DNA of 64,000 nucleotides from Brucella cytisi (GTDB lineage: Bacteria > Pseudomonadota > Alphaproteobacteria > Rhizobiales > Rhizobiaceae): assembly GCA_012103075.1 (NCBI GenBank), contig JAAVLQ010000001.1:248001-312000 (forward strand). The letters run 5' to 3'. Shown here piece by piece: positions 1 through 64,000 of the stretch. Under the pieces are notes generated by a model. That model was given only the letters and a program-made list of their open reading frames with translations. It was not told where the DNA came from and did not search any database. Positions within the stretch are counted from its first letter, which is position 1. Each line of letters opens with the position of its first letter. Made by a program: the position numbers and the translations under genes.

Positions 1-1687
1 GCCGGAAGGCACGGTGAATGTTTATTTCGAGGCTGCCGCCGTCATCGTCACATTGATCCTGATCGGGCGTTATCTGGAGGCGCGTGCCAAGGGACGCACC
101 AGTGCGGCTATCAGCCGGCTGGTCGGCTTACAGGCGAAGTCGGCGCGTGTGGTGCGTAATGGCGAGACGATCGATGTGCCGCTGGAAGATGTTCGCGCTG
201 GTGACGTCGTACAAGTCCGCCCCGGCGAGAAAGTGCCGGTCGACGGCGAGGTGATCGAAGGTTCGTCCTATGTGGATGAATCGATGATTACCGGCGAGCC
301 TGTACCTGTTGCCAAGGAAAAGGGCGCGGAAGTGGTCGGCGGTACGATCAATAAAACCGGTGCTTTCACCTTCCGTGCAACCAAGGTTGGCCGTGATATG
401 GTGATCTCGCAGATCATCCGCATGGTCGAGGACGCTCAGGCCGACAAGCTGCCAATTCAGGCAAAGGTCGACAAGGTGACCGGCTGGTTCGTACCCGCTG
501 TTATGGCAGCCGCAGCACTGACCTTCGCTTTGTGGCTTGTGATCGGTGGCACGGGCATGCTGGGTTACGCGCTGGTGAACGCCATTGCGGTTCTCATCAT
601 CGCCTGCCCGTGTGCCATGGGCCCCGCCACACCAACATCCATCATGGTCGGTACCGGTCGTGCAGCCGAGTTCGGCGTCCTGTTTCGCCGCGGTGATGCT
701 TTGCAGACCTTGCGCGATGTTTCCGTTATCGCCGTCGACAAGACCGGTACGCTGACACAGGGAAAGCCCGCTTTGGCCCATTTTGCGACGGTCGATGGCT
801 TTTGAAAAGGATGAACTTCTGGCACTTGTCGCGGCTGTGGAGGCACGTTCCGAACACCCGATTGCCGACGCGATTGTAGAAGCAGCGAAAGAGAAGGGAT
901 TGAAGCTTGCGGATGTATCGGCTTTCGAAGCCGTACCGGATTTGGTCTGAAGGCTCATGTGTCCGGCCATGAGATTGCCATCGGCGCTGATCGTTACATG
1001 GCGAAACTCGGTCATGATGTTGCTGTCTTTGCCAATGATGCGAAGCGTCTCGGTAATGAAGGGCAGTCTCCGCTCTATGCAGCTGTCGATGGTAAGCTGG
1101 CAGCAATCCTGACTGTTGCCGACCCAATGAAGGAAACCACGCCAGCGGCGATTGCTGCCCTGCACGAGCAGGGGCTGAAGGTAGCCATGATCACCGGCGA
1201 TAACCGCCGCACGGCGGAAGCCATCGCAAAACGTCTCGGCATCGATGAAGTCGTTGCAGAAGTGCTGCCAGACGGCAAGGTTGAAGCGTTGAAGCGGCTT
1301 TCGGCAGGTGGCAAGCGGATTGCCTTTGTCGGTGATGGTATCAACGATGCGCCTGCATTGGCTGCTGCCGATGTCGGCATTGCGATTGGCACTGGCACGG
1401 ATATTGCGATTGAAAGCGCGGATGTGGTGTTGATGTCGGGCGATCTGCGCGGCGTGGTCAATGCCATTGCCATATCGAAGGCGACGATCCGTAATATCAG
1501 CGAAAACCTGTTTTGGGCCTTTGCCTATAACGTCGCGCTGATCCCTGTCGCGGCGGGTGTCCTCTATCCGTTCACTGGCACGTTGTTGTCACCGGTTCTG
1601 GCGGCAGGCGCCATGGCTTTCTCCAGCATCTTCGTGCTGAGCAATGCCTTGCGGCTCAAGGTTTTTAAAAGCCCGATAGAGGCCTGA
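1..1687 (+). CDS. copA: Copper-translocating P1B-type ATPase, 5' end outside window, frameshifted
   Basis: Exports Cu(I) across the inner membrane using ATP. The reading frame is open from base 2, so the N-terminal metal-binding domains and first helices lie outside the window. Visible in order: actuator motif TGEP, the CPC metal-binding helix motif (CPCAMG), phosphorylation motif DKTGTLT, the SEHP nucleotide-binding motif and the hinge GDGINDAP. The frame breaks near 800 (extra T, or two bases lost) and near 943 (one G lost). The middle segment around SEHP reads only in another frame, and the original frame then resumes. The residue after CPCAMG is Pro where Leu is usual (GLATPTS). A terminator follows directly. 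A CueR/HmrR-type regulator lies about 10 kb downstream. Family certain; the breaks are probably sequence errors. Confidence 0.9.
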
Positions 1688-1694
1688 GCAAAAG

Positions 1695-1723
1695 AAAGGC
1701 GCGGTGTTGACCGCGCCTTTTTG
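1695..1723 (+). terminator. Rho-independent terminator after copA
   Basis: Perfect 11-bp stem AAAGGCGCGGT / ACCGCGCCTTT with a GTTG loop, followed by T residues, starting 8 bases after the copA stop. Confidence 0.85.
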
Positions 1724-1728
1724 TTTCA

Positions 1729-1821
1729 GAGCATTTCCAGCAAAAGTGCGAAGCGGTTTTGCGTAGGATAATGCGTACAAACAAAGACATAGAGCGGTTC
1801 CGTTTCAACCGGAACCGCTCT
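1729..1821 (+). repeat. Bipartite palindromic repeat, copy A
   Basis: Module 1 starts GAGCATTTCCAGC and contains AAAAGTGCGAAGCGGTTTT. It is followed by an A-rich linker and module 2, a perfect 12-bp hairpin AGAGCGGTTCCG / CGGAACCGCTCT. Related copies lie at 39872-39973, 45000-45100 (reverse orientation) and 61172-61218 (module 1 only, reverse). The hairpin end covers the stop codon of the convergent gatZ gene, so it may also act as a terminator. Confidence 0.8.
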
Positions 1822-4050: not shown

Positions 4051-4064
4051 AAGGTGCACCGCGA

Positions 4065-5059
4065 TTATGTGCGCATGGATTTCGAGCGCACGTCCAGCCA
4101 GACGGCGACCAGAATGACCACGCCCTTGACGATGAGCTGATAGAAATAGGGCACCGACAGCATGTTCATGCCGTTATTGATGACGCCGATGATGAGCGCG
4201 CCGAGAATGGTGCCGACCATGGTGCCGACGCCGCCAGCAAGTGAGGTGCCGCCCAGCACGACCGCAGCAATGGCGTCGAGTTCGTAGCCCATGCCTGCAT
4301 TGGTCTGTGCTGAGGACAGGCGTGATGAGAGCAAGATGCCGCTGATGGCTGCCATGACGCCGGAGAGCATGAAGACGATGATCTTGATGCGGTCGACGCG
4401 GATACCCGAATAGATCGCCGCTTCCTTGTTGCCGCCCGACAGATAGATGCGGCGACCGAAAACAGTCTTCGACAGCAGGATATAATTGAAGATGAACAGA
4501 ACACCGACGATCCAGATGATGATCGGCAGACCGAGCCAGTTTTCCGAACCAATGGCGAGCCGGTATCGTTTTCGATGATTTCAGGCGCGCCATTGGTCGG
4601 CAGGCTGACCATGCCGCGATAGATGCCCATTGTCGCAACCGTCACGATGAAGGATGGCAGCATCAGCTTTGCCGAAAGTACACCATTGAGCCCGCCCATG
4701 ATGGCGCCCGCCGCAAGGGTGAAAATAACGGTCGGCACGAAGCCGAAGCCCATGGCGAAGGCTTGCGCTGCCACCATGCCGGAAACTGCGATGATCGAGC
4801 CGATGGACAGGTCGATTTCGCCGAGCAGGATCACATAGGTCATGCCATAGGCAGCAACGGCGATCACCGCCACCTGCTGCATGATGTTCATGAAGTTGTT
4901 GAAAGCGAGAAAGCGCGGGTTGAGCACCGCGAAGACCACGCAGAGCACGGCCAACGAGATGATGATACCGCCATACTGGCGAACCAGCGGGGAGCTGAAA
5001 AGCGAACGGCGGACTTCCGCGTCCACGGCTTTCTTCTGAATATTTTGTGCGTTGCTCAT
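4065..5059 (-). CDS. Ribose-type (RbsC family) sugar ABC transporter permease, frameshifted
   Basis: Integral membrane permease of the CUT2/RbsC family, about 330 residues when repaired. The N-terminal half (from MSNAQNIQ) carries hydrophobic helices and the conserved [15 protein letters not shown] stretch. The C-terminal half in another frame carries the typical [18 protein letters not shown] loop. One base is missing near 4560 between [11 protein letters not shown] and LAIGSENW. The start codon overlaps the ATPase stop (ATGA-type), so the two are coupled. It works with the ATPase at 5056-6601 and the binding protein at 6776-7680. Family assignment is secure; the break is likely a sequence error because homology resumes immediately. 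Confidence 0.88.
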
Positions 5060-6601
5060 ATGTGCATTCCTGCTGCGTAGCTCATGACGGTTTCGGGCGT
5101 AAGGCCATCGGCATCGACAATGGCGGCGACATGCTTGTTATGCATGATAGCCACCCGGTCGCTGAGGCCCAGCACTTCCGGCAGTTCGGAGGAAACCATC
5201 AGGATCGCCGCGCCATTGGCGGCAAGTTCACGGATGATGCGATAGATTTCGAATTTTGCGCCGACATCGACGCCGCGTGTCGGTTCGTCGAGAATGAGGA
5301 TGCGCGGCTTTTTGTCTGCAGCCATTTTGCCAGCACGATCTTCTGCTGGTTGCCGCCGCTGAGCGACCCGGCAACCGTGTCGATGGATGCTGTCTTGATG
5401 GCAAGACGCAGTACTTCCGCCTTGGCGGCAGAGCGCTCAGCCCGAGAGCGCATGAGGCCGAAAGGCCCTGCAAGCTGTCCGAGCCCAACCATGTTGATGT
5501 TGCGCTCAACGCTATGCGGAAGAACGAGGCCTTCTTCCTTGCGGTTCTCGGTCACGAAAGCAATGCCGTTGCGAATGGCATCGGTCGGTGAGGAGAGGGT
5601 GATGGCTTTGCCGTCGAGCCTGATTTCGCCCGTGGGCCGAAGGATACCGAACAATGCCTTCATCACGTCCGAACGGCCAGAACCGACCAGTCCAAAAGCC
5701 CCAAAACTTCGCCGGGTTTCACGTCGATGGAAACATTGCTAAATTTGCCCGCAACCGAGAGGTTCTTCGTTTCAAGTATGGGCGGCACGCTTGCCGATGG
5801 CCTCGGCGCTTCGCGCGGCGGATAGATGTCGTTCATCTCACGGCCGACCATCAGGGCAATCAGTCGCTCGATGGTGGTCTCACTCTTTTCCGTGGTCGTT
5901 ACATATTCGCCATCGCGAACGACCGTAATGTCGTCGGAAAGCCGCATGATTTCTTCCATGCGATGCGAAATATAAATAACGGCTGTGCCCCCGGCTTTCA
6001 GGCGCTCGATAATCGAAAACAGGATTTCCGCTTCGCTGTCGGAAAGCGATGAGGTCGGCTCATCCAGAATGACGACGTCAGCAGGCTGGCTCAGGCCCTT
6101 GGCGATTTCGACGAGCTGGCGCTGGGCAATCGACAGGTCGCCGACCTTTGCGCGTGCATCGACGGGCAGACCAAGCTCATCGATGAGCTTGTCGGCAGCT
6201 GCGTTCAGTTCCCGCTCCCGCACAAAACCGAAGCGGCTAGGCTCATGATTGGCGAAGATGTTTTCGGCCACGCTGAGATTGCGCGACAGACTCAATTCCT
6301 GAAAGACTATGGCGATGCCATTTGCACGGGCATCGCGCGGGTCTTTCGGCGCATAGGCTGCGCCTTTCAGCAAAATGGTGCCGGAGGTTGGCTTGAAAAC
6401 GCCAGCCAGAATCTTCATCAGCGTGGATTTTCCGGCGCCGTTTTCGCCAAGAAGCGTATGCACGCGGCCGCGACGCACGGTCAGGTTCATGCGCTTGAGT
6501 GCGATGACCGGGCCGAAGGATTTCGCCACATCGCGAATTTCAAGAACCATATCCGGCAGGGCGTTTCCTTCGGATTTGGTGGCTGTCTCGGTATCTGTCA
6601 C
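5056..6601 (-). CDS. Sugar ABC transporter ATP-binding protein (RbsA family, two ATPase domains), frameshifted
   Basis: Double-domain ATPase of CUT2 sugar importers. Domain 1 has Walker [10 protein letters not shown], signature LSIAQRQ and Walker [13 protein letters not shown]. Domain 2 begins around VKPGEVLG, with a degenerate P-loop, signature SLSGGNQQK and Walker [16 protein letters not shown]. Frames break near 5692 (one T lost in a T-run) and near 5323 (one G lost). A GTG at 6601 has GGAGG eight bases upstream and is chosen as start; a GTG at 6616 is also in frame. A hairpin at 6736-6767 separates it from the binding-protein gene. Function is secure, substrate is inferred. Confidence 0.88.
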
Positions 6602-6735
6602 TTTGGGGGCCTCCACTCTCCGTTATTCAGTTTCGCAGTGGATTTTAAGATCGATCCCGAGCGAAGTCTGCAATTCAAAAGGGTTGCGGCGGCGGCAAGG
6701 CGTGTGGTGTTCGCCGGGCCGCCGCACGCAGATAG

Positions 6736-8055: not shown

Positions 8056-9085
8056 ATGACCGAACAGAAGATCAGGACGATGGAAGAGTTCGCGGCGGCA
8101 AGCGGATTGTCTCGTCCTACGGTCTCGAAATATTTCGACAATCCTGAAAGCGTAAAGCCTTCCACGCGGGCTCGTATCGAAAAGGCGTTGAAAGACTATA
8201 ATTATCAGCCCAACATTTTTGCAGTCAGCCTCAATCGCAAGAAGCCGAAGAATATCGGCGTTATCGTTCCGCATATATCCGATCCATTCTATGCGGAAAT
8301 CATTCGCCAGATCGAGATGCGCTGTCTGGCGGAGGGCTACTGGACCATCGTGCTGTCATCTCATGGTGAGAGAAAACTCGAAGCGCGGGCGATGCGCACC
8401 TTGATGTCTCTCAAGATTGCGGGTGTTCTGATGGCTCCGCTCGGTTTCGATACCGACGAGAAGCTTCTTTCCAGTCTGTCGAACTCGACACCTGCAGTTT
8501 TCTGGACAGCCGTATCAGCGATGATCAGCCGTTCGTCGGCACGGATAATCGTCAGAGCATAGGGAATATCACCGAATATCTCTATCGAACGGGGAGCACC
8601 CCTGCTTCCTCGAAATGCCAGCTGTAAACCAGAATGCGCTGGAACGGCGTTCGGCCTATATCAAAACCATGGAAAGGCTTGGCGTTGAACCAATCGTCCT
8701 TCCCATAGCCGCAAAGAACTGGAATTTTGAGGAGCTGGGCTATCAGGAGGCAGGCCGGATTTTTGATCGCGGCGGGTTTCCGACGCGCACGGTTCTGTGT
8801 GCCAATGATCGTCTGGCCTTCGGCGTGATCTCCGCCGCTTTCGAGCGTCGGCGCCATGTCGGGCGCGAAGAGGGCTGCGATCTTCGCGTCGCCGGTCACG
8901 ACGACCATCCTCTCAGTCGCTTCACCTGTCCGCCGCTGACGACGGTTGCGCAGGATTATCGGCAAATCGCGCAACTCGGTCTCGATATGCTTTTCTCGCG
9001 GATCAATGCGCAGGAAAGCGGGGCGGCCGTCGAGAAGGAAATTCGCCGTCTCGATAGCCACCTCATCATGCGCGGATCTGCGTGA
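8056..9085 (+). CDS. LacI-family transcriptional regulator, frameshifted
   Basis: About 343 residues when repaired. The N-terminal helix-turn-helix reads MEEFAAASGLSRPTVSKYFD, followed by the hinge region and the periplasmic-binding-protein-like effector domain (NIGVIVPHISDPFYAEII, then LCANDRLAFGVI, and RVAGHDD near the C-terminus). Start ATG 8056 is chosen because HTH proteins of this family begin a few residues before the helix; a TTG at 7963 would add an implausible leader. The frame breaks near 8505 (one C lost) and near 8603 (one T lost). Divergent from the tagatose-type transporter operon, so it most likely represses it in the absence of the sugar (inference). Confidence 0.87.
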
Positions 9086-9487
9086 TATCACCGAAAAGCC
9101 TCCTGAAAGCCGGGATATACACAGTTTTGCCATGCGTTCGCCGCAATTGATGGGCGAAAATACGCCTATTCGCGCAACGTTTCACGTCTTTTGACAGCTC
9201 AAGCTTCTTCTCGGCACTCTGCCTTAATTAAGGATGCCGCTTGGACTGAAACCAGTCCCTCTCGGCCTTTCCGGTGAAAGAATTACTCTGCCGCTCCCTA
9301 GATTTTTTCCATGCTCGCCTATGTGGATATGTAGGCAGCAGGGAGTTGTGCGGCACACGGATTGCTGCAAGACTTGCAACCTATATCTGACCATATCTGA
9401 AATGCCTCGAAATTGGTGAGCGGTTAATCCGCCCGGCTTCTCTGCACATATGACGGGATGCCGGTTGTGCTAGAAGGGGGTAATGTC
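9086..9487. other. Intergenic stretch without recognised gene
   Basis: About 400 bases between the LacI-type gene and gcd. It holds only a short palindrome CTTAATTAAG at about 9224-9233 and a purine-rich Shine-Dalgarno AGAAGGGGG at 9471-9479 for gcd. A short open frame at 9234-9419 lacks coding character. No RNA gene or repeat recognised. Confidence 0.5.
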
Positions 9488-11798
9488 TTGCTTATCTGGT
9501 TAACTTCTATTGTTCTTTTCCTGATCGGGCTTGCGCTCGGCGCGGGAGGCATCTGGCTCGCCGCACTCGGCGGCAGCTGGTATTACATACTTGCGGCGAT
9601 CGGCTTTCTGCTGACCGCTGTTTTGCTTTCCCGGCGCAGCGCCTCAGCATTATGGGTCTATGCGCTTGTCATTCTCGGATCGCTCGGCTGGGCCGTTTAT
9701 GAAGTCGGCTTCGATTGGTGGCAGCTTGGCGCACGCGGCGGCGTCATCGTGCTGCTCGGCTTCTGGATGCTGACGCCCCGGATCAGGAAACCTCTGAATA
9801 ACGGGGCAGGTAATAGTGGTCTGCCGCTGGCTGCAGCCTCGGTGATCGCAGTCGTGGTCGCAGGCTATGCGATAACACAGGATACCTACAATATTGCCGG
9901 AGACCTGCCGACGGAGAAGGTCGCTGCAACGCCCGATCTTGGCGGCAACGTGCCCGATGGCGAATGGCACCAATATGGTCGAACGCCTTACGGTCAGCGC
10001 TACTCGCCGCTGGCGCAGATCACGCCGGAAAATGTTTCCAAGCTTCAGGTTGCCCGGCAGTATCAGACCGGCGATGTGAAGCAGCCGCAGGATGTGGGCG
10101 AAACGACCTATCAGGTTACACCGCTCAAGATTGGTGATTCCTTTATCTCTGCACGCCGCATAACTGGGCTATTGCGCTGGATGCGGCGACCGGCAAGGAA
10201 AAGTGGAAATTCGACCCCAAGGTCGGTTTCAATACAGACCGCCAGCACCAGACCTGCCGTGGTGTGAGCTACTGGAAGGATGCGACCGCAACGGCTGGAG
10301 CGAAATGCGCCGAGCGTGTCTATCTGCCGACATCTGACGCACGATTGATTGCACTGGATACGGCCACCGGAGAAATCTGCACGGATTTCGCCAATGGTGG
10401 AACTCTCGATCTCAGCCACGGCATGAAATACAATCCGGCAGGGTATTACTACTCCACTTCGCCCCCTGCGGTCGTCGGCGACAAGATCATCGTTGGCGGT
10501 GCCGTCAACGATAATTATTCGACGGAAGAACAGTCGGGCGTCATTCGCGCATTCGATATCCGCACCGGCCAACTGCTGTGGAACTGGGATTCGGGCAATC
10601 CGGATGTCACCACGCCGCTGCCGGAGGGGGAGCACTACACAACCAACTCACCCAATAGCTGGTCCGTTTCAAGCGTCGATGAGAAGCTCGGGCTGATCTT
10701 TGTTCCACTCGGCAACAAGGTGCCCGACCAGCTTGGTATGGACCGCAGCGAGAATGTGGAGAAGTTTTCCTCGTCCATCGTCGCTCTCGATGTGAACACC
10801 GGACAGCTTCGCTGGGTGCGCCAGACTGTTCACCATGATCTGTGGGACATGGACGTTCCAGCCCAGCCGGTCCTGCTGGAAATTAACGGGGTTCCGGCAC
10901 TGGTCGGACCGACGAAGCAGGGCGATCTCTATGTTCTGGATCGACGCACTGGTGAGCCGATCATTCCAGTCAGGGAAATTCCTGCTCCGACAGGTGCGAT
11001 ACCCGAGGACCATACTGCGCCGACGCAGCCGATCTCCGATCTTACTTTCAGTCCGCCGCCCTTGCGCGAAAGCGACATGTGGGGTGTGACGATGTTCGAT
11101 CAGCTCGCTTGTCGTATCAAGTTCCACGAGCTGTTCTATGAGGGCCGATATACCCCGCCTTCGCTGCGCGGAACGATTGTCTATCCGGGCAATTTCGGTG
11201 TGTTCAACTGGGGCAGCGTGGCCGTCGATCCGGTGCGGCAAGTTATGTTCGGTATGCCGACCTATCTCGCCTTCACCTCGCGCCTCGTTCCACGCGCGGA
11301 CATTCCGCCGAAAGGACAGGATGAAAAGGGAAGCGAGCAAGGTCTGAACCGTAACGATGGTGCTTCCTATGGCGTCTTCATGGGGCCATTCCCGGGTCCG
11401 CTCGGTATTCCCTGCCAGACGCCGCCATGGGGCTATGTCGCCGGTGTTGACTTGCGAACCGGCAAGATTGCCTACAAGCATCGGAATGGGACTATCCGCG
11501 ATATGTCACCGGTTCCACTTCCGCTGAAGGTCGGCGTTCCGGGCATTGGCGGGGGCCGATGATCACCGCAGGCGGCGTTGCCTTCCTTGGTGCAGCCGTG
11601 GATGACTATCTGCGCGCCTATGACCTGACTTCGGGCAAGCAGCTCTGGGAAGCACGGCTTCCTGCTGGCGGCCAGTCGACGCCAATGAGCTATACGGTCG
11701 GCGATCAGCAATTCGTTCTGATGGTTGCCGGCGGGCATGGTTCTGTTGGCACCAAGCCCGGCGATTATGTGATCGCCTATACTTTGCCGAAAGGCTGA
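9488..11798 (+). CDS. gcd: Membrane-bound PQQ-dependent glucose dehydrogenase, frameshifted
   Basis: Oxidises D-glucose to gluconolactone in the periplasm and passes electrons to ubiquinone. The N-terminus has about five hydrophobic helices (residues 1-140), then a beta-propeller PQQ domain with recognisable Gcd segments: WHQYGRTPYGQRYSPL, HHDLWDMDVPAQPVLL, MWGVTMFDQLACRI and the C-terminal AGGHGSVGTKPGDYVIAY. The length (about 770 residues) fits the family. Frames break near 10140 (one C lost) and near 11553 (one G lost in a G-run). A TTG at 9488 has AGAAGGGGG eight bases upstream; an ATG at 9458 is in frame but has a weak ribosome site. No PQQ synthesis genes are in the window. Confidence 0.9.
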
Positions 11799-14054: not shown

Positions 14055-15243
14055 TGGGAGCTGCCTTTCCCGGTGATTTCTATCGCTGCATCGAGAATGA
14101 CAGCAGCCGCAAAGGCGAGGAGAACGGTAGGCAAGGCACCCAGCAGAACAAGATCCATGGCCGTTTGCCCAATGCCCTGAAAGACGAATGTTCCGAAGCC
14201 GCCGCCACCAATCAATGCCGCAATGGTCGTCAGGCCGATATTCTGCACCATGACGATACGTATGCCGGTGAGAATAACGGGAAAAGCGAGCGGAAATTCC
14301 GTTTTGAAGAGGCGTTGTAGGCGCGTCATGCCCATGCCGCGGGCTGCGTCCGTTACCGGCTCCGGCACCTGTGCCAGCCCTGCGACGGTATTTGCCACGA
14401 TAGGCAGCAGCGAATAGAGAAAAAGCGCAACGAATGCCGGTGCAGCGCCAATACCACGGATACCGATAGCACCCGCCCGTGGAAAACTGCGTGGCGACCC
14501 AGCCGAGTGGCGCAATCAAAATACCGAACAGGGCCATTGACGGAATGGTCTGCACGATATTGAGGCTGTTAAGAACGAAAGCCCGCAACCCGGCCAAGCG
14601 ATGGCAGACAAGCCCCAGCGGAATACCCACTGCGGTCGCCGCCGCAAGCGATCCCAATGCCAACGCTATATGCCGTTCCGCTTCGTTCCAGAAGCTGTCC
14701 GCGCGGCTTTGATATTCTTTCATGAATGAGATGCTGTCCCAGAGGCCTGAGGAAAGCAGCGCGGCCAGAAGTAATCCTGCAATGACCAGCAGCCCGACCC
14801 GTAAAACGGACCGGCACGCAGCCGGACCAGCCCATCCGCGACATAAAGTGCGCTCGCAAAAACAACAGCCAGAAACCGGAAGCCGGAGAAACGCGCGCAT
14901 ATCTGTTTCCTTCGGGCGACAGATATGACGCGGCGGGCCGATTGCCACCATGACGGATGCGAGACAGAACAGAGCCGCGTACAGCCGCAACAAATTGTTG
15001 CTGCGGACAAAGCCGATCAGCAGTCCTGCCGCTACGACAGCGGCGAACAGCAGCGCCAATGAGGTCGGCAGGGCATCCAAAAATAACGCGGTTCGCCTTG
15101 AACGATGCGGTTTGCCCGAAAGTTTGCGAATGGCAGAAGCAATCCCGATAAGGCGATTGCCGCAATGACCAGTCCGAGCTTGTCGATATATGCAAACAAG
15201 CCCCTCGTGCCATTTGCCGGATCGTCTGGTGTGTTGCACTCAT
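14051..15243 (-). CDS. yehY: Osmoprotectant ABC transporter large permease (YehY type), multiply frameshifted
   Basis: Reconstructed length is about 390 residues, matching the long YehY-type permease. The N-terminal helices are spread over several frames (LGLVIAAIALSGLLLPFANF, LPTSLALLFAAVVAAGLL, VGLLVIAGLLLAALLSSG). The permease core, with ALGSLAAATAVGIPLGL and the ATPase-docking loop DAARGMGMTRLQRLFKTEFP, is split near 14480. I count about five breaks (near 15195, 15085, 14915, 14815 and 14480), the densest in the window. A 597-residue open frame here is a chimera of this gene and yehX and is not a real protein. True decay is possible but the neighbours argue for sequence error. Confidence 0.8.
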
Positions 15244-30599: not shown

Positions 30600-31691
<1,092 letters not shown>

Positions 31692-31693
31692 TT

Positions 31694-36432: not shown

Positions 36433-36464
36433 CTTTTTGAGCATGCTCTGATCACGGATAAATC

Positions 36465-48533: not shown

Positions 48534-50244
48534 ATGCCAGCCAGAATTAGTCGCGCCACCTATGCGCAAATGTTCGGCCCTACTGTTGGCGATAAGGTGC
48601 GTCTCGCCGATACGGAACTGTTTATCGAAGTCGAACGGGACCTCACCACCTATGGCGAAGAGGTAAAGTTTGGCGGAGGGAAGGTTATCCGCGACGGTAT
48701 GGGACAAAGCCAGATGTCGCGCGCCGACGGTGCGATGGATACAGTCATTACCAATGCTCTGATCCTTGATCATACTGGTATTTATAAAGCCGATGTGGGG
48801 CTTCGCGACGGGCGTATCGCGGTGATCGGAAAGGCCGGAAATCCGGATACGCAGCCCGGCGTTTCGATCATCATCGGCCCCGGTACGGAGATTATCGCGG
48901 GTGAGGGCAAGATCCTCACGGCGGGCGGTATCGACACGCATATCCATTTCATTTCACCGCAACAGGTGGATGAAGCACTTAATGCAGGCATCACCTGCAT
49001 GGTCGGTGGCGGCACCGGATCCGCCCATGGCACGCTTGCAACCACATGCACGCCGGGGCCGTGGCATATAGCCCGGCTGATCCAATCATTTGACGGCCTG
49101 CCGATGAATATCGGTGTGTTCGGCAAAGGAAACGCTTCACTGCCCGGTGCATTGGAAGAAATGATCCGCGCCGGTGCCTGTGGCTTGAAGTTGCATGAGG
49201 ACTGGGGCTCGACGCCAGCTGCGATCGATAATTGCCTGTCGGTTGCCGATCAGTTCGATATTCAGGTTGCGATCCACACCGATACGCTGAACGAAGGCGG
49301 CTTCGTCGAAGACACGCTCAACGCCTTCAAGGGACGCACGATCCATTCCTTCCATACGGAGGGCGCCGGTGGCGGACACGCCCGGATATTATTCGCGTGT
49401 GTCAGTATCCGAACGTGTTGCCGGCTTCGACAAATCCGACCCGGCCTTACACGGTCAATACGATTGCAGAGCATCTCGACATGCTGATGGTGTGCCATCA
49501 TCTGTCCCCGGCAATTCCTGAAGATATCGCCTTTGCAGAAAGCCGTATCCGCAAGGAAACAATCGCCGCAGAAGACATCCTCCACGATATGGGAGCGTTC
49601 TCCATCATTTCCTCCGACAGTCAGGCGATGGGCCGTGTCGGCGAAATGATCATTCGCTGCTGGCAGACTGCAGACAAGATGAAGAAGCAGCGCGGCAGTC
49701 TTCCCGACGACAAGCTGGGCAATGACAATTACCGGGCGCGTCGCTACATCGCGAAATACACCATCAACCCAGCAATCGCCCATGGCATGGCGCATGAAAT
49801 CGGTTCGGTGGAAGTGGGCAAACGGGCTGATCTCGTTTTGTGGAATCCTGCTTTCTTCGGAATCAAGCCGGAGATGGTTCTGCTTGGTGGCTGGATCGCA
49901 ACCGCGCCGATGGGGACCCGAATGGCTCAATTCCAACGCCGCAACCGATGCATTATCGTCCGATGTTTGGCTCGTTTGGAAAAGCCCGCACCAATACGTC
50001 CATTACATTTGTTTCGCAGGCCGCAATGGATGAGGGGCTTCGAGAGAAGATTGGGGTGGACAAGCAGATGATTGCAGTGGCCAATACCAGAGGCGGTATC
50101 GGCAAACATTCCATGATCCTCAACAATGCGATGCCGCAAATGGAAGTTGACCCGGAAACCTATGAGGTGCGCGCAGATGGCGAACTTCTGACCTGCGAGC
50201 CCGTCGACGTCGTGCCAATGGCGCAACGCTACTTCATGTTCTGA
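48534..50244 (+). CDS. ureC: Urease alpha (catalytic) subunit, frameshifted
   Basis: About 571 residues. Nickel-ligand and catalytic motifs are all present: [14 protein letters not shown], the carbamylated lysine in [12 protein letters not shown] (about residue 219), [25 protein letters not shown], the flap MVCHHL and [13 protein letters not shown]. Frames break near 49382 (one C lost after GGHAP) and near 49918 (one G lost in MGD). Between the breaks the sequence is fully conserved, so an active enzyme is likely encoded in the organism. Needs UreDEFG for nickel insertion. Confidence 0.95.
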
Positions 50245-50260
50245 TCTTGAAAGGCAAAAA

Positions 50261-50783
50261 ATGTTTCGTGCCACTGCCATTATTCGTGCGGATAAGGTGA
50301 TCGATGCCGTGCCTGCGGGCCATGCCGTTCTCGAACGTGATGAACGTCATTTGCGGCGCAAAGCCATTGTACTGGAAGGCGGCGAGAAGGTGCTCATCGA
50401 TTTCGCAGAGCCGGTGGTGCTGGAACACGGTGACCGGCTTGTCCTCGATGACGGACGTGAGATTGAAATCCGCGCCGCAAGCGAGAAACTTTACGAAATC
50501 CGCGGGCGTGATCCGCTGCATATTGCCGAACTCGCCCGGCATATCGGCAACCGTCACCTCGCGGCTCAGATCGAGTGATCGCATCTTCATTCTTCGCGAC
50601 CATGTCATAAAGGCGATGCTAGAAGGGCTTGGTGCGACAGTTACGGATGTAACGGCTATTTTCAGTCCACTACGCGGTGCTTATTCCGGTGGCCATTCGC
50701 GTCATGACCATGGGCATGACCACGATCATCATCATGGTCATCACGAACACGATCATGAACATCACCACCACCACCACGACTAA
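50261..50783 (+). CDS. ureE: Urease accessory nickel chaperone UreE with His-rich tail, frameshifted
   Basis: About 174 residues. N-terminal peptide-binding domain ([20 protein letters not shown]) and nickel-binding domain ([22 protein letters not shown]) are followed after the break near 50573 by [17 protein letters not shown] and a His/Asp-rich C-terminus (residues about 145-174, [18 protein letters not shown] and more). The tail can bind several Ni2+ ions, as in Klebsiella-type UreE. It ends ...HHHHHHD with a TAA at 50781, and its last codons overlap the start of ureF in another frame. Confidence 0.9.
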
Positions 50784-53867: not shown

Positions 53868-55422
53868 CTAAACACTTTCCTCTGCCCGTTGGGGACTCCG
53901 GTCTCCGCGTTGCATCGGCAAATCGGGGATGCGAATCTCGAAATGTGCCCCAACCGGGCGGTCTTCTCGAAGCTCGATTGTCCCACCATGCGCGCGGATC
54001 AGTTCTTGCGCGATGGCAAGCCCAAGACCCGTGCCGTCACTGCGTGTCGATCCCTTGAATGCCGTGAAAAGATTGTCGCGTGCTTTTTGTGGCAAACCGG
54101 GGCCGGTGTCCTCGACACCGATGATTGCCGTCGTCCCGATTCTTCCGGCAGAAATCGTGAGTCGCTTGACGGTCGCGTCATCAATGCTCTGATCACGCTC
54201 CATGGCTTGCACAGAATTCCGGCAAAGATTGCTCAGCACACGGAACAACTGTTCCGAATCGACATTGAGTTCGAAATCCTCTGGAACAAGATTCTCGAAC
54301 TCAACGCTGCTTTCTGACACGGGGCTAAGGGTTTCCTGAACGTCAGCGATAATTGTGTGCAGCAGAACGCGACGCGGGCGCGGTGGTGCTTCTTGCGAGC
54401 GACCATAGGCCATGACGCTTTCGGAATAGCTGATCGCGCGGCTGAGAGTACGGATAAGTTTGGGTGCAAAACCGCTGCACCATCGGGTCTTCGGTATCGG
54501 CAAGCCGGTCAGACATCAACTGCGCTGAGGCCAGAATATTGCGCATGTCGTGGTTGATTTTGGAGACGGCGAGGCCAAGATCGGCGAGATGTTTCTGTTC
54601 TTTGAGCGTTCTCTGAAGGTCGCTCTGAATATGCGATATCTGACGCTGGGCCACGCCGAATTCGTCCTTGCGGTTTTCTGGCACAAGGATCAGCGCAGGA
54701 TTGTCAGGGGATGAGGCGAAATCGATCATGTTGCGATGCATGATACGCACCGGCCGCAACAGCATTTCGTGAATGATCAGGTAAATCAGGCTCGCCGCTA
54801 TGACTGAAATGATGAGCGAGATAAAAGTCACGTTGCGCGCATAGACGAGCATAGCGTGTCGGAGGGGTGCATCCGAGGTCACGATTTCAATAATACGTCC
54901 CGGAGAACTGGATGGCGAAACCGAACCATAGATTCGTAGCGTTCTGTCTCCGCCGTTGAACAAGGTTCCGAATGCGTCCCATATGGCAGCTGCTTCGCTG
55001 ATATTGTTGAGATCAATGACCGGGTCAATCTTGCCGGGTACTTCCGACATGGCAAGCAGGCGCGAAGCACCGGCTTCCCGCATGGCTATAGCTTTCGTGC
55101 CGGTTGCCAGAAGTACCTTGTCCTGAATGTCACGCGGCACATCCATATCGCCGCCTGCGGCGAGAACCTCGCTGACGGCGCCCACCGTATCAAGTCTCGA
55201 ACTCATCCAGCGCACGCGCATATTGGCAACAGACGGGACGAAGATCAGAACTTCGGTGATCAGCACGGCAAGTGCGGTCAAGAGCAATAGCTTGCTCGAA
55301 AGCCGGTTTCGCCGGGGTAAACGTGTGAACTGGGTTGACGAGAGCCGTTCCGTGGTCGCAGTTTGGGAGGCCGCTTCAGGGGAAGGCGTGCCCGTATCTG
55401 TGGTCTTTTCAACAACCGCCAT
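53868..55422 (-). CDS. Membrane sensor histidine kinase, frameshifted
   Basis: About 518 residues. Two transmembrane helices (LLLLTALAVLITEVLIFV near residue 45 and FISLIISVIAASLIYLII near 210) enclose a periplasmic sensor domain. The phosphoacceptor His is in SKINHDMRNILASAQ, followed by the ATPase domain with N-box LFRVLSNLCRNSVQAM, G1 VEDTGPGLP and G2 DGTGLGLAIAQELI. One extra T near 54475 breaks the frame between H-box and ATPase domain. No response regulator gene is adjacent, so it is an orphan kinase. Divergent from the RND efflux genes, which might be its target. Confidence 0.88.
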
Positions 55423-55748
55423 AGCCTGTGCTTCCAACTCAAGGTGAACCGGCCTGATTGCCGCGGTGCCTCAACCTGTGTGCCATCGAAACGCAATACA
55501 TAAAGGTAGCCTCCTATATATGGAGCCGACCGATAAATCCAACAGCCTTTGTTCAATCGGTTAAGAACGAACCCGTTTCCGGGATATCTGTGAGCAGTAT
55601 TACCGAAATTTAACTCGACGCCTTGGAATCGTACGTGCAAAGTCTTGGTTGGAAAAATTCATGGATCCTGATGGGTTGCATGATTTGCGCAATGTGAAGG
55701 CAATCATCATTCTGATACTATTTGCTGGCATTTTCCGCGCCCGACAAA
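55423..55748. other. Divergent promoter region between histidine kinase and efflux genes
   Basis: 326 bases with no gene. Contains a small dyad CTCC-TATATATG-GAG near 55513 and AT-rich patches suited to promoters. No RNA gene, repeat or operator could be assigned. Confidence 0.45.
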
Positions 55749-56929
55749 ATGGTTTCGAAAAACGAGGGCCGTCAGGTGGCGGTAGGCCTTGCCGGAGAGC
55801 TGAATGAAATCCGGAAGCAGATTGCCTTGTGCCTGCTCATAGCTGTGGCCGCCGTTGGCGGCTGGTATGGCTATAAGAACAAGAATGATGTGGTGAAGGC
55901 CGCAGCAACCGGAGAAGAAGCGCAGAAAGGCGGAAGCGGGCGATCCGCACCACTCGTTGTTGTCGAGGCTGCCGGCGAAGAGACTATCAACAACCGTTTG
56001 ACGGCTATCGGTTCGGCACGGGCTCTCAGCACTGTGTCGATAACCCCGTACTCCAGCGGTTACATGACGAAGCTTTACGTCAAGGCGGGCGATAGCGTGA
56101 AGGAAGGCGACTCGATTGCTGAACTTGACGCCGAGACGGAAAAGATCGCTGTCGCTAAGGCCGCGACGGCGTTGAAAGATGCACAGACGACACGCCAGCG
56201 CATCGCAAAATTGCGGGCGACGAACACCGCAACTGAAGTTCAGGTGGTTGAGACTGAGCTGGCAGTCGCGAACGCACAGCTTGCTTTGCAGGACGCGCAA
56301 CTCGCCTTGAGCCGTCGCACGGTTCGTGCACCAATCTCCGGTATTGTTGGTATTCTTCCTGTCAACGTGGGCAACTACATTACCGCACAGACTTCTATTG
56401 GCCGTATCGATGACCGGTCAAAAGTGCTGATCGATATATGGGTGCCAGAACGCTTCGCACCGCAAATCAAGGTTGGCCAGCCATTGACTGCGGAATCGAC
56501 CGCTTTCCCCGGTGAAACCTATAGCGGTGAGATCAACGCGGTTGACAATATGCTGGATGAAGCCAGCCGTACGCTGCATGTTCGCGCAGAAGTGCCGAAC
56601 ACGCAGGATCGTCTGCGCGCGGGCATGTCATTTTCCGTCACGGTTCTCTTTCCGGGTGATCGTTATCCTTCGGTCGATCCGCTGGCTATTCAATGGGGCG
56701 CTGACGGTTCCTATGTCTGGCGTGTTGAGGACGGTGTCGCCAAAAAATTGTCGCTCGTATCGTTCAGCGTAATTCAACCAACATTCTCATCGATGGTCCG
56801 GTGAAACAGGGCGACATGATCGTAACGCAAGGTGTTCAAACCGTGCGTGATGATGCGCCGGTACGTGTAAAGGACGAGCAGGGTACGGCACTGGCTGATC
56901 CTGTTTCGATAACACGTACTGCAGGATGA
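55749..56929 (+). CDS. RND efflux periplasmic adaptor (membrane fusion protein), frameshifted
   Basis: About 393 residues. Start at ATG 55749. An N-terminal anchor helix (IALCLLIAVAAVGGWYGY, about residues 27-44) is followed by the lipoyl half-motif YVKAGDSVKEGDSIAELDAE, a short coiled coil (TALKDAQTTRQRIAKL, VVETELAVANAQLALQDA), the second half-motif RRTVRAPISGIVGI, and a beta-barrel domain. One indel near 56748 puts the last 60 residues in another frame, ending at 56929. It links the RND pump at 56940 to an outer-membrane channel; no tolC gene is present here. Confidence 0.88.
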
Positions 56930-56939
56930 GGGTAAGCGC

Positions 56940-59900
56940 GTGACTGGTCACAATTCCTCATCCAGCAGTGGCGGATCGACGGCGCTTTTCATCCGTCGTC
57001 CAGTTTTCGCTTTTGTTATAAATGTGCTGATCGTTGTCGCGGGTCTTGCAGCCTTCACTGGCGTTGATATTCGCGAACTGCCGGACGTTGACCGGCCTGT
57101 AGTGACAATCAGCACAGATTTCAGTGGTGCATCCGCTGAAACCATTGATCGTCAGTTGACACAGGTTCTCGAAAACGCAGTCGCGCGTGTTTCGGGCGTG
57201 AAATCTATTTCTTCGACATCCTCGTTCGAACGCAGCCGTGTCACGGTGGAATTTAACGACGGTGTAGACCTCAACGTTGCAGCCGCAGATATGCGCGACG
57301 CGATCTCTCGTGTCGCCAACAACGTGCCCGAAGAGGCAGATCCGTCACGCATCATCAAGGCGGATTCCAATGCTGATCCCGTGATGCGTCTGGCAGTTAC
57401 GTCCGACACCATGTCTGTCGATGACATGACGGTTTTAGTCGAAGACCAGATACAGGATATCCTGTCAGCAGTCCCGGGTGTTGCTGACGTGCAGATCAAC
57501 GGTGAACGTGACAAGATTTTCCGTATCGATATCATTCAGGCGCGCCTTGCGAGCTACGGTCTGACCATTGCCGATATATCCTCGGCGCTTTCTTCCATGG
57601 GCCTAGACGCTCCTGCCGGTTCATTGCGTAGTGCCGATCAGTCCATTGTGGTTCGCGCTACGGCCAATCTGGAAAAGCCGGAAGATTTTGAGAACGTCTA
57701 CATCAACGGACGCACGCAGATCCGCGATGTTGCGACCGTCACGCTTGGGCCGGATATCGAAAGCTCGGCAGTTCGCTCTAACAGCAAGACGGCAATCGGT
57801 CTAGGTATTGTCCGTCAGGCACAGTCAAATACGCTCGACATCTCGGAAGGCATTCGCGCAGCGGTTGCCAATTTGCAGCAAACCTTGCCTGCGGGCGTGA
57901 ATATCGCCGTTACCAGTGACGATGCGAATTTCATCAATGGTGCCATCCACGAGGTGGAAATCGCACTGATTGCGTCAGTGATCATCGTTGTGGCAATTAT
58001 CTTCGTGTTCCTCTGGGATATACGTGCAACGCTTATCCCGGCCTTGTCCATGCCTGTCGCTTTGATCGGCACGATTGCGGCCATCTATCTGGCAGGATTC
58101 TCGGTCAATATTCTTACCCTTCTGGCTTTGGTGCTGGCTACGGGTCTCGTGGTCGATGACGCCATTGTTGTGTTGGAAAACGTTGTCCGGCGACGCAATC
58201 AGGGTATGGGGCCGCGTGCTGCGGCAGTCCTCGGCACGCAGGAAGTCTTCTTCGCCGTTATTGCCACGACGCTGACTTTGGCGGCAGTCTTCGTTCCAAT
58301 TTCGTTTTTGCCGGGGCAGGCGGGTGGTCTGTTCCGTGAATTCGGCTTCGTGCTGGCAATTGCTGTTCTTCTGTCATCTGTTGTTGCGTTGACGCTTTGC
58401 CCCATGCTTGCCTCTCGCTTCCTCAAGGAAGGAAGTGGCGAAGACGGCGGCCACGGTCCGCTTTTCCTGCGTCGTATCGGCGGCGGGCTTGCGAACTTCT
58501 ATAAAAAGACGCTGCACATTTGTCTGTCGGCGCCATTCGTTGTTGTGCTGGTGGCAATGCTTTTCGCAGGCGCATCCTTTATCGGCTACGGTCTGATCCG
58601 TCAGGAACTGACGCCTTCGGAAGATCGTGCCGTTGCACTGCTGCGCATCAACGGGCCCCGAGGGGCATCAGTGTGGAGTTCCTCCAGTCGCAGCTCGACA
58701 AGATTGAGGAAGCCGTCCAGTCTCTGCGCGATAGCGGTGAAATCATTACTACTTATGCCATCGCAGGTTCCGGCGGGTCGTCCAATAACGGCTTTGTTGT
58801 CCTGACGCTGGCACCGTGGAAGGAACGCGCGCGCAGCCAGCAGGAAATCATGGCTGACATTACCCAGCGCATCAAAGGCATAACCGCGGTGCGTATTTTT
58901 ACTACCCAACCGAACAGCCTTGGTATCCGTGGTGCGGGCAACGGTTTGCAGTTTGCCATACTCGGTAGCGATTATGCCAAGCTACAGCCTGCCGCGCAGG
59001 CGGTCGTTGCTGCGCTGGAAAAGGATCCACGGTTCGTGCAGCCGCGACTGTCCGTCGAGCCGACCCAGCCGCAGCTTTCCGTCGAGATCAATCGCGAACG
59101 AGCATCCGATCTTGGTATCGACATTACAGGGCTTGCGAATGCTGTGCAGTCGGTACTCGACGGTCGCAAGATCGGATCGGTTTATGTCGGAGATCGCAGT
59201 TTTGATGTGAAACTCGTTGCCACCACCAACCCGATCAACGATCCGACCGATCTTGAAAACATATTCATGAAGACGACGGACGGTCGCTATGTGCCGATGT
59301 CGTCTATCGCTACGGTCGTTGAGAAAGCGGTTCCGCCACAGCTTGATCGCGAGACGCGTCAGCGCTCGGTGTCCATAACGACAAATCTGCGCGACGATTT
59401 CGCCTTGGGTGATGCCTATCAGGCGGCACAGGAAATCGCAGCGCCTTTGTTGCCGCCGGGAAGCCATATCATTCCGCTGGCGGAAGCTTCGACGCTCAGC
59501 GAAACATCAAGCGGCCCGGCAATGGTGTTCGGTTTTGCCATCATCATCATTCTTCTAGTGCTGGCAGCGCAGTTTGAAAGCTTTGTCAGTGCGCTGATCG
59601 TGATGGCGACGGTTCCTCTCGGGCTTGGTTGTGCGGTTTTTGCGATGCTGCTCACAGGTACGAGCCTGAACGTCTATAGCCAAATCGGTCTCGTGCTTCT
59701 GGTCGGCATCATGGCCAAGAATGGTATCCTGATTGTCGAATTCGCAGATCAATTGCGTGACAGGGGCTTGAGCGTTCGAGAAGCAATCGAGGAAGCATCC
59801 AACATTCGTCTTCGCCCGGTCTGTATGACGATGATCTGCGCCGTGCTTGGCGGTGTGCCGCTGGTTTTGGCAAGTGGCGCTGGCGCAGAAGCCCGTGTGG

Positions 59901-60094
59901 CTCTGGGCTGGGTCATTGTGGGTGGTCTTGGATTAGCAACGATTGCTACGCTTTATGTAACGCCGGTCGCCTATCTGCTGCTGGGACGCTTTACGCAGCC
60001 CAAAGCCGAAGAGGAAGCACGACTCGAAAGGGAGCTGAACTACGCCCTTAAAGGGAAGTCACAAAAGGGTGGCACGGCTGAACCGGCGGAATAG
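56940..60094 (+). CDS. RND multidrug efflux permease (AcrB/MexB family), frameshifted
   Basis: About 1050 residues, full length. GTG start at 56940 with GAGGG upstream. It has 12 expected helices; helix 4 carries the proton-relay region TGLVVDDAIVVLENV, helix 10-11 the matching MAKNGILIVEFADQL. RND signatures are FIRRPVFAFVINVLIVVAG and RLRPVCMTMICAVLGGVPLVLA. One base is missing near 58662 at the start of the second periplasmic loop (ISVEFLQSQLDKIE). Substrate unknown; the adaptor overlaps the same transcript 10 bases upstream. Confidence 0.91.
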
Positions 60095-60128: not shown

Positions 60129-60144
60129 GCTGTTTTGAACCGGA

Positions 60145-61218: not shown

Positions 61219-61257
61219 TTGGTCTGCCTTATTTTTGCAGATGCCAATTATTCAGGC

Positions 61258-62118: not shown

Positions 62119-63006
62119 GTGGCTGCTCTTTCCGGCTTTACACCCATGCGTCGGTTCACAAGCTGTGCCGCGACGCCAATCAGCGCAACCAGCACAGCAG
62201 CCATCAGAGCAGCGGCAACAAGTGCTGCCCATATCTGCACGGTCTGGCCATAGTACGAGCCTGCAAGAAACCGGGCACCAAGACCGGCAACTGCACCGGT
62301 TGGCAATTCACCGACGATAGCCCCCCACAAGGCTGATCGCGACGGCGATCTGCATCGATGTGAACAGGAATGGCATGGCCGCAGGCCAGCGCAGTTTCCA
62401 GAACACCTGCGATCTTGATGCATTATAGGTGCGCATGAGGTCGAGATGCATCACATCAGGCGATCTCAGCCCTTTCACCATACCGACCGCAACCGGGAAG
62501 AAAGAGAGATAGGTCGAGATGATAGCCTTGGGCAGCAAGCCCGATATGCCAATGGCATTCAGGACCACGATAATCATCGGCGCGATGGCAAGGATCGGGA
62601 TCGTTTGTGAGGTGATGATCCATGGCATCAGGCTCTTGTCGAGTGTGCGGGAATGAACGATTCCGACTGCAAGAAGAACCCCAGCGCCGACCCAAGCACA
62701 AAACCGAGCAGGGTAGACGATAATGTGACCCATCCGTGATAGATCAGGCTGCGCTTGGAACTCGGTTTGACCCCAAAGACGGTTTTCCAGATTTCTTCAG
62801 CTACTTGATGCGGTGCGGGCAGGACCGGACGGTCCTGATGCATCGTATTGGCAACAAGCGTCGAGAAAGTGATTTCTGTCCCTGCGCGTGTCGCCTGATC
62901 ACGCTCAAACGGGGCGTTGAGCACCGCCGCCGCCGTACCAAAGCGCAATAATGACTGCGAGTATAGTCGCCACGGGGATAAATCTGTCGTGCAGAAAGCC
63001 TTTCAT
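62115..63006 (-). CDS. ABC transporter permease (NitT/TauT type), first of pair, frameshifted
   Basis: About 298 residues when repaired, starting MKGFLHDRFIPVATILAVII. Membrane segments and the docking loop LMRTYNASRSQVFWKLRWPA identify a TauC-type permease. Further conserved parts are VLPAPHQVAEEIWKTVFG and LDKSLMPWIITSQTIPILAI. Frames break near 62965, 62690 and 62325. Being distinct from the intact permease at 61258, it makes the transporter a heterodimer, as in Rhizobiales pyrimidine importers. Sequence error is the likely cause of the breaks. Confidence 0.84.
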
Positions 63007-63042
63007 GGCCGATCTCCAGCACGATGCCGTTGAAAAGCGTCC

Positions 63043-63862
63043 TTATTCATGGATGTGCCCCAAACGCAAACCCTCACGGACGCGGTGGGCAATTTTCAGG
63101 AACGCTTCGGACTCCCTGATTTCAAGTGGTCTGTCCCGGCCAAGATCGCAATCGATGATTTCATGAATGCGGCCCGGGCGCGGGCTCATGACAACGATCT
63201 TGGTTGAGAGAAACACCGCTTCCGGGATGGAGTGTGTGACGAAAATCACTGTTTTGCGGGTTGCTGCCCAAAGCTTGAGAAGCTGTTCGTTGAGGTGATC
63301 GCGCACGATTTCGTCCAGAGCGCCGAAGGGCTCGTCCATCAGCAGCATATCAGGATCGAATGATAATGCGCGGGCTATCGATGCGCGCTGTTGCATGCCA
63401 CCGGAAAGCTGCCGGGGATATTTTTGTCAAAGCCTGAGAGATTGACGAGCGCGAGGTTCTTTTCGATCCGCTCGCGCCGTTCTGCCTTGGAGAACCTCAT
63501 AATCTCCAGCGGCAGGCTGATATTGTCTTCGATGGTGCGCCACGGAAACAGAGCGGCCGCCTGAAATACGTAACCATAGGACCGGTCGAGACGGGCTTGC
63601 TCCGGTGTTTTGCCGTTGACCGTGACAGAACCTGATGTCGGTTCCTCCGTGTCGGCCACCACACGCATCAGCGTAGTCTTGCCGCATCCCGAAGGTCCGA
63701 TGAAGGAAACGAACTCGCCGCGCTTGACGGCAAGATCAATATTGGACAGCGCATGGACAGGTCCGTCATTCGTCTCGAAGACGAGCGACAAGTCTTTGAT
63801 GTCGATCACTGTCTGCGCATTTGCCTCGCCCTCTCCGGGGCCATGCTGTCATTCAAGTTCAT
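63043..63862 (-). CDS. ABC transporter ATP-binding protein (NitT/TauT type), frameshifted
   Basis: About 272 residues. Walker A FIGPSGCGKTTLMRVV, Q-loop YVFQAAALFPWRTIEDN, signature LSGGMQQRASIARAL, Walker B MLLMDEPFGALDE and H-loop VTHSIPEAVFL are all present. One A is missing near 63420 (FDKKYPRQLSGG) and one C near 63842 in the N-terminal leader. With the second repair the protein starts at ATG 63862 (MNLNDSMAPGEGEA). Without it, GTG 63809 would be the start. It energises the two permeases at 61258 and 62115. Confidence 0.87.
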
Positions 63863-63895
63863 GCGTGGTTCCCGAAGCTGGACGATGGCCATGTC

Positions 63896-64000
63896 TCAGA
63901 CCCCTATCGGCATATGTTCGGCGCTGCGTTCCACCTTGCGCGGCGCAACGATTTCCTTCCATTGTGACAGCGCCCGATTGACGGCACCGTTCGGCTCGCG
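63896..64000 (-). CDS. C-terminal fragment of an unidentified gene, runs past window end
   Basis: Open minus-strand frame of 34 codons ending in TGA, continuing beyond base 64000. It reads REPNGAVNRALSQWKEIVAP and then RKVERSAEHMPIGV. The ATPase start lies 33 bases downstream, so the gene heads the same operon. Pyrimidine-degradation enzymes such as dihydropyrimidinase or the dihydropyrimidine dehydrogenase subunit are often placed here, but the fragment is too short for me to assign it. Confidence 0.6.
   Translation of the reverse strand, partial: REPNGAVNRALSQWKEIVAPRKVERSAEHMPIGV

What the first reader, a model, noticed from the sequence alone, without database searches (positions are those of the whole stretch)
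1..64000. Single-base indels interrupt about 35 genes, probably sequencing error
Conserved proteins switch frame with no residue lost, usually inside short homopolymers: for example T-run at 5692, G-run at 11553, A-run at 35941 and 44275, and the CCC after GGHAP at 49382. Essential or core genes (murA three breaks, ureC two, hisD two) are hit as often as accessory ones, and neighbours such as infA, soxA and fucD are clean. Genuine decay would not spare motifs on both sides of every break. Gene calls taken at face value would wrongly describe urease, peptidoglycan synthesis and several transporters as broken. Some breaks are insertions (35941, 36318, 46445, 54475), others deletions, which points to homopolymer miscounting.
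Basis: partly seen in the sequence, partly recalled or inferred. Interest (0 to 1): 0.75.

Follow-up and report, generated by a model that had tools for sequence, protein, structure and literature searches.

The report
Sequencing errors, not broken genes
The many apparently broken genes in this stretch are most likely mistakes of long-read DNA sequencing, partly at runs of one letter and partly at one probably methylated five-letter word (CCAGG/CCTGG) that the assembly has almost wholly lost, so gene losses and some single amino-acid changes read from it should not be believed.

Summary
The cause is assembly-wide: 0.95-1.19 breaks per coding kb in the window and the next 600 kb, versus 0.045-0.12 between two relatives, while in-frame stops are not clearly raised.

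About 58% of breaks touch runs of four or more equal bases (background 18%), but a second systematic error exists: CCWGG is almost erased. The window has none; the whole genome has 30 CCAGGC against 2819 for the reversed control word, the only such case among 297 genomes of the family. These sites become wrong bases or gaps even in rRNA operons, often differently in different copies (27 of 28 altered; 0 of 99 in four relatives). Trp after CC reads Arg in 65 of 72 cases.

The genome carries two dcm-vsr pairs, one beside an EcoRII-type endonuclease. Best reading: nanopore-type consensus errors at homopolymers plus methylated CCWGG, a published error mode.

The parts
1..64000 (.). Whole window: 53 frame breaks in 32 of 56 tested genes; zero CCWGG sites
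2..1681 (+). Heavy-metal P-type ATPase (copper type among the best), 2 breaks
   Evidence: family of intact relative
5059..6622 (-). ABC transporter ATPase with two matched ABC_tran stretches, 2 breaks
8056..9082 (+). LacI-family regulator, 2 breaks
9467..11795 (+). Membrane-bound PQQ-dependent dehydrogenase, 2 breaks
14057..15128 (-). ABC permease (BPD_transp_1), 5 breaks, the most of any tested gene
15275..16156 (-). OpuAC-type substrate-binding protein, 2 breaks
19505..22501 (+). Sarcosine oxidase alpha subunit (soxA), no break
24395..25484 (+). Extracellular solute-binding protein, 2 breaks
31571..32802 (+). Enolase-superfamily (MR_MLE) enzyme, 1 break
35585..36429 (+). 2,4-didehydro-3-deoxy-L-rhamnonate hydrolase-like (439 bits, below that model's cut-off of 500), 2 breaks
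36441..37739 (+). Enolase-superfamily dehydratase, no break
   Evidence: (below cut-off)
40949..42236 (-). hisD, histidinol dehydrogenase, 2 breaks
43055..44340 (-). murA, 3 breaks
48534..50241 (+). ureC, urease alpha subunit, 2 breaks
50217..50699 (+). ureE, urease accessory protein, 2 breaks
53871..55703 (-). Sensor histidine kinase, 2 breaks
56919..60037 (+). RND-type permease, 1 break (two overlapping open frames in the window)

Best explanation
The window belongs to a long-read-only assembly whose consensus was not corrected with accurate reads. Two systematic basecalling errors remain. (1) The lengths of homopolymer runs are miscounted, mostly as deletions. (2) Nearly every CCWGG site is misread, mostly as a substitution (commonest at the middle base), in roughly a fifth of conserved sites as a small gap. 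The second error most likely arises because the cell's DNA was methylated at CCWGG by resident Dcm/EcoRII-type cytosine methylases and the basecaller had not learned that signal. Shown: the breaks, their similar rate over 664 kb, the run dependence, the loss of CCWGG in the whole genome, and the dcm, vsr and EcoRII genes. Inferred: the nanopore platform, the methylation itself, and that the genes are intact in the cell.
For: Break rate 0.95-1.19 per coding kb in three C1 segments with either reference, controls 0.045-0.12. In genes of at least 85% identity: 440 breaks in 385 genes (other reference 440 in 374), controls 31 in 402 and 28 in 397. Break rate per 1000 runs: 3.1, 12, 58, 143 for runs of 3, 4, 5, 6. 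C/G runs of 6: 13 versus 38 and 48 in about equal lengths of the relatives. CCWGG: 0 in the window, 17 in the next 600 kb, 818 and 840 in about 664 kb of G009 and G011. Of 208 sites conserved in both relatives: 3 intact, 166 substituted, 39 gapped; same-composition words GGWCC, GCWGC, CGWCG 60-68% intact with under 1% gapped; CCSGG 71% intact, 18 of 662 gapped. Whole genome CCAGGC 30 versus reversed word 2819, 11 relatives at ratios 0.83-1.14; lowest of 297 family genomes. Trp after CC reads CGG in 65 of 72 (other reference 68 of 74); the relatives keep TGG in 169 of 171 and 173 of 175. rRNA operon CCWGG altered in 27 of 28 copy-sites; 0 of 99 in G005, G007, G009, G010. Two dcm-vsr pairs in this genome, one with an EcoRII-C protein. 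G005 has 18 breaks in 10 genes, no vsr match, and keeps CCWGG. G002 has dcm, vsr and EcoRII-C, no breaks in 17 genes, and keeps the word. Low completeness with few contigs: 85.78% in 3. The same two error classes are published: PMC6591954 and PMC8011154 (passages).
Against: No reads were seen, so platform and depth are inferred. 133 of 472 breaks (reference G009) and 150 of 484 (G011) touch neither a run of 4 nor a CCWGG of that relative. Some are probably CCWGG sites the relative lacks, since CCGG is enriched at low-run sites, 62 of 211 versus 19.8 expected, but this is not proven. In-frame stops do occur: 27 in 409 genes (32 in 407) against 18 and 27 in 434 control genes. Searches printed zero stops, but there the aligner's scoring let it avoid them, so those zeros are not evidence. 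G002, with the same kind of system, holds 14 CCWGG in 40 kb against 49.4 expected from G009, so some real avoidance may add to the loss. G005 is itself broken and 69% complete, so a missing vsr there is weak evidence. The rRNA sites were defined from a G009 copy. Contamination of 6.38% was not examined.
Confidence: 0.95

Rival explanations
1. Real, recent mass pseudogene formation (genome decay).
For: The breaks are in the deposited sequence, in 32 of 56 genes. In-frame stops are not absent (27 in 409 genes).
Against: Stops are close to the control level (22 in 385 genes of at least 85% identity versus 14 in 402 and 22 in 397) while breaks are about 14-fold higher; protein identity is 0.91-0.98 in 29 of the 32 hit genes; hits follow gene length, murA included; rRNA operon copies of one genome differ at runs and at CCWGG; similar rate over 664 kb.
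Confidence: 0.02
2. CCWGG was lost by evolution (avoidance of the resident EcoRII-type enzyme or deamination of 5-methylcytosine), and only the homopolymer breaks are errors.
For: EcoRII-C, dcm and vsr genes are present; G002 with such a system has 14 CCWGG in 40 kb versus 49.4 expected.
Against: 205 of 208 sites conserved in two relatives are lost, where same-composition control words lose 32-40%; the commonest change is at the middle base, not C to T; 39 of 208 are gaps; rRNA operon copies change in different ways; Trp to Arg in conserved proteins; no other of 297 family genomes comes near.
Confidence: 0.03
3. Basecaller bias against CCWGG irrespective of methylation.
For: No direct methylation data were seen.
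Against: G005, an assembly with the same kind of breaks and no vsr match, keeps CCWGG: 33 in 40 kb, and CCAGGC 2351 versus 2176 control. It may have been called with other software, so this is one case only.
Confidence: 0.07
4. Programmed frameshifting, slippage or a changed code keeps the products whole.
For: Conserved residues continue on both sides of the breaks.
Against: rRNA operons, not translated, carry the same kinds of difference; in the word scans run, the strongest signals were run length and CCWGG-like words; two relatives lack nearly all such breaks.
Confidence: 0.01

Closest known systems
Nanopore consensus errors at Dcm motifs and homopolymers (Wick et al. 2019, PMC6591954; passages seen)
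   Same: Errors at CCAGG/CCTGG and in run lengths dominate. There about 70% of consensus errors of then-current ONT basecallers with default models were in Dcm motifs, and the authors infer that training data lacked Dcm methylation.
   Different: Here the organism is an alphaproteobacterium with EcoRII-type genes, and the loss is read from a public consensus without reads.
Homopolymer indels causing frame shifts and false pseudogenes (Homopolish, PMC8011154; passages seen)
   Same: Indels in runs shift frames; Racon-Medaka R9.4 assemblies gave 151-5298 pseudogenes.
Modification-mediated errors (Modpolish, PMC10687267; passages seen)
   Same: A lineage-specific modified motif is misread through the genome.
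   Different: Their motifs were GCAGC and GCTGG in Listeria and the errors mainly mismatches; here CCWGG, with gaps too.
EcoRII restriction-modification (endonuclease structures 1na6, 3hqg matched by the Neorhizobium homologue)
   Same: C5-methylase, Vsr and EcoRII-C endonuclease pieces side by side on C3 near 802 kb.
   Different: Specificity not measured; the module's genes are themselves broken into pieces in this assembly.

Membership tests
Homopolymer indel artefact of long reads | Break rate climbs with run length | tested here: met
   3.1, 12, 58, 143 per 1000 runs of 3, 4, 5, 6; runs of 1 and 2 at 0.72 and 0.4
Homopolymer indel artefact of long reads | Genome-wide, independent of gene function | tested here: met
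   0.95-1.19 per kb in three neighbouring C1 segments; P 0.19 against length-proportional. On C2 and C3 only open-frame length was looked at, without a relative's C2 or C3 as control
Homopolymer indel artefact of long reads | Absent from accurate reads of the same DNA | not testable with these tools
   No reads held
Dcm-motif miscall | Errors at CCAGG/CCTGG through the genome | tested here: met
   CCAGGC 30 versus 2819; 3 of 208 conserved sites intact
Dcm-motif miscall | CCWGG cytosine methylase in the strain | tested here: inconclusive
   Two dcm-family genes next to vsr; CCWGG specificity only inferred from the family and the EcoRII-C neighbour
Dcm-motif miscall | 5-methylcytosine present at CCWGG | not testable with these tools
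   Needs raw signal or bisulfite data
EcoRII-type restriction-modification system | C5-methylase above curated cut-off | tested here: met
   TIGR00675 234.3 bits, cut-off 100.65; NF007772 353.8 bits, below its cut-off of 710
EcoRII-type restriction-modification system | EcoRII-C endonuclease domain | tested here: met
   PF09019 101.1 bits on an open piece beside the 802-kb methylase; not found in the one neighbouring piece searched beyond vsr at the 136-kb methylase
Genuine pseudogenisation | Raised nonsense substitutions and relaxed protein identity | tested here: not met
   Stops 22 in 385 genes versus 14 in 402 and 22 in 397 controls; identity 0.91-0.98 in 29 of 32 hit window genes

The most novel reading that the evidence does not exclude
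The bare consensus of a public long-read genome records which methylase was at work when the cells were sequenced: near-total loss of one palindrome marks active EcoRII-type CCWGG methylation in this Brucella-group bacterium. Scanning assemblies for erased words could map active methylases, and flag unsafe missense calls, without raw signal.
Probability: 0.85. Interest if true: 0.35.

Novelty: already known. Interest (0 to 1): 0.2.

Why it matters
Taken at face value this genome would be called deficient in cell-wall synthesis, histidine synthesis, urease and several transporters. The less visible harm is worse: genes that look whole carry wrong residues at CCWGG, for example Trp read as Arg in 65 of 72 CC contexts. 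A simple count of CCWGG-containing words against a reversed control shows it at once.

Tried and rejected
Homopolymers as the only cause: my first tally put 83 of 156 placed single-base events at run length 1, which did not fit. From the contexts I read this as partly gap placement (the relative has a change inside the run) and partly CCWGG. GANTC (CcrM) as the error motif: rejected, 356 of 419 conserved sites intact. Other erased words: none near CCWGG among 4-, 5-, 6-mers and gapped 3+3 words tested; GGGGGA at 0.20 I take as a run effect. A fast DNA-gap count was too noisy because gaps occur between relatives too; replaced by the frame-aware aligner. Zero in-frame stops: withdrawn, an effect of my scoring; recounted, where stops exist at about control level. 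A paper search for an Ochrobactrum nanopore genome assembled with Canu (3 listed, listing only) gave none that I could tie to this assembly. A plasmid copy of the EcoRII locus was too distant (93.5%) to serve as truth.
Full report
WHAT THE WINDOW IS. The window is bases 248001-312000 of contig C1 of a 5,865,807-base genome in 3 contigs, completeness 85.78%, contamination 6.38%. Twenty-three other same-genus genomes were listed. The best-scoring named record is Falsochrobactrum shanghaiense, 91% in SoxA, family Brucellaceae, so the organism is probably of the Brucella/Ochrobactrum group (inference; gene order as in Brucella is recalled, not tested). For that reason I counted and compared only, and mended nothing.

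THE OBSERVATION. G009 aligns to 63,195 of 64,000 window bases at 85-89% DNA identity. A protein-to-DNA aligner that allows frame breaks found 53 breaks in 32 of 56 genes (one ORF doubtful). murA has 3, hisD 2, ureC 2. Eight control comparisons among relatives in this region gave 0-5 breaks each. Breaks follow gene length (P 0.19).

IT IS NOT LOCAL. Over 664 kb of C1 with two references, breaks run at 0.95-1.19 per coding kb; G009 against G011 gives 0.045-0.12. With G009 as reference 262 of 409 genes are hit. In-frame stops: searches printed zero, but my scoring let the aligner gap them away. Recounted with a mild stop score there are 27 in 409 genes (32 in 407 with G011), against 18 and 27 in 434 control genes; in genes of at least 85% identity 22 in 385 and 25 in 374, against 14 in 402 and 22 in 397. 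So stops are at or a little above the control level, while breaks are about 14 times higher (440 versus 31 and 28). Mean length of non-overlapping open frames of at least 100 aa is 264 and 216 aa in the C2 and C3 samples, 236-265 on C1, and 320-361 on C1 of the relatives; break rates on C2 and C3 were not measured.

CAUSE ONE: HOMOPOLYMERS. Of 488 distinct placed sites (407 of 472 and 416 of 484 breaks could be placed with the two references), 417 are single-base: 306 deletions and 111 insertions, 239 of 417 touching a run of 4 or more. The rate per run climbs steeply with length. C/G runs of 5 and 6 are scarce in G000 (189 and 13, versus 243 and 38 in G009, 310 and 48 in G011). Readable parts of the rRNA operon copies in this genome differ by 3 to 12 single-base gaps in 1.1-2.2 kb. 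Copies in G009 and G010 differ by 0-1, G005 by 4-8, and G007 has two rRNA types with up to 8 single-base gaps but, for most pairs between the types, more mismatches than gaps. Part of each stretch seems masked (seen as N in the one copy checked).

CAUSE TWO: CCWGG. The window holds no CCWGG and the next 600 kb hold 17, against 818 and 840 in about equal lengths of G009 and G011. Of 208 sites conserved in both relatives 3 are intact, 166 substituted and 39 gapped (with a slightly different flank rule, 3 of 207). In the whole genome CCAGGC occurs 30 times against 2819 for the reversed word; 11 relatives have ratios of 0.83-1.14. Among 297 genomes drawn from the family it is the only one of its kind; the next lowest ratio I read from the table is about 0.49 (G219). 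No other short word tested is erased to that degree.

WHY THIS IS ERROR, NOT EVOLUTION. At nine CCWGG sites of the rRNA operon, defined from one G009 copy (by the coordinates seven lie in 23S and two just downstream), 27 of 28 readable copy-sites of G000 are altered (20 of 20 in 23S), at several sites differently between copies; 99 of 99 in G005, G007, G009 and G010 are intact. Trp codons of the relatives, where G000 has CC before them, read CGG in 65 of 72 cases and TGG in 2; the relatives keep TGG in 169 of 171 and 173 of 175 (codons within 4 of a break left out). In the window itself it is 3 of 3 and 5 of 5 with the two references. The commonest change is at the middle base alone (87 of 207 sites), which is not what deamination of 5-methylcytosine would give (established knowledge).

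THE LIKELY AGENT. G000 has dcm-family genes at C3 about 136 kb and 802 kb, each with vsr beside it, and an EcoRII-C endonuclease piece beside the second. A Neorhizobium plasmid carries the order dcm, vsr, type II endonuclease, that endonuclease being EcoRII-C. G002 has dcm, vsr and EcoRII-C too but no breaks in 17 genes and CCWGG present, though below expectation in 40 kb (14 versus 49.4); over its whole genome CCAGGC is 1453 versus 1615 control. G005 has 18 breaks in 10 genes, no vsr match, and keeps CCWGG (33 in 40 kb). So such breaks do not need the methylase, and the methylase genes do not by themselves erase the word; erasure was seen only where both meet. This rests on one genome of each sort, and how G002 and G005 were sequenced is inferred.

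WHAT REMAINS. With G009 as reference 472 breaks divide into 273 at runs, 66 at CCWGG and 133 at neither; with G011, 282, 52 and 150 of 484. Some of the rest may be CCWGG sites that the relative lacks (CCGG enriched at low-run sites), some are aligner noise (control rate), some unexplained.

AGAINST WHAT IS KNOWN. Wick et al. (PMC6591954, passages) report that Dcm sites made about 70% of consensus errors with default models, then homopolymers. Homopolish (PMC8011154, passages) describes the false pseudogenes. PMC10687267 (passages) describes motif-wide modification errors. [quoted passage not shown] PMC8495745 (passages) reports that ONT reads detect methylation at CCWGG in E. coli. So the kind is already known. 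I did not search specifically for earlier use of erased words to infer methylases; (listings) are the nearest.

Noticed in passing
window 48687-48975, - strand: Rfam 5' ureB sRNA (RF02514, 96.8 bits) matches the strand opposite ureC; probably the conserved coding sequence read backwards rather than a separate RNA (the reading is mine).
   Followed up: no
G000:C3 about 135.6-137.0 kb and 801.5-802.9 kb (L254, L247): Two separate dcm-vsr pairs in one genome; the second with an EcoRII-C endonuclease piece and 93.5% DNA identity over 3.8 kb to a Neorhizobium petrolearium plasmid, suggesting transfer.
   Followed up: partly
G005 (unnamed same-genus genome; L268, L269): A second assembly with frame breaks: 6 contigs, 69% complete, soxA in three pieces, 18 breaks in 10 genes, but CCWGG kept.
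   Followed up: partly
G002, L266-L267: CCWGG at 0.28 of the G009-based expectation in 40 kb while carrying dcm-vsr-EcoRII genes and no breaks in 17 genes; possible real avoidance.
   Followed up: no
G044 (family survey): CCAGGC 2404 against 14 for the reversed word: an extreme bias in the other direction in a 2.0 Mb genome.
   Followed up: no
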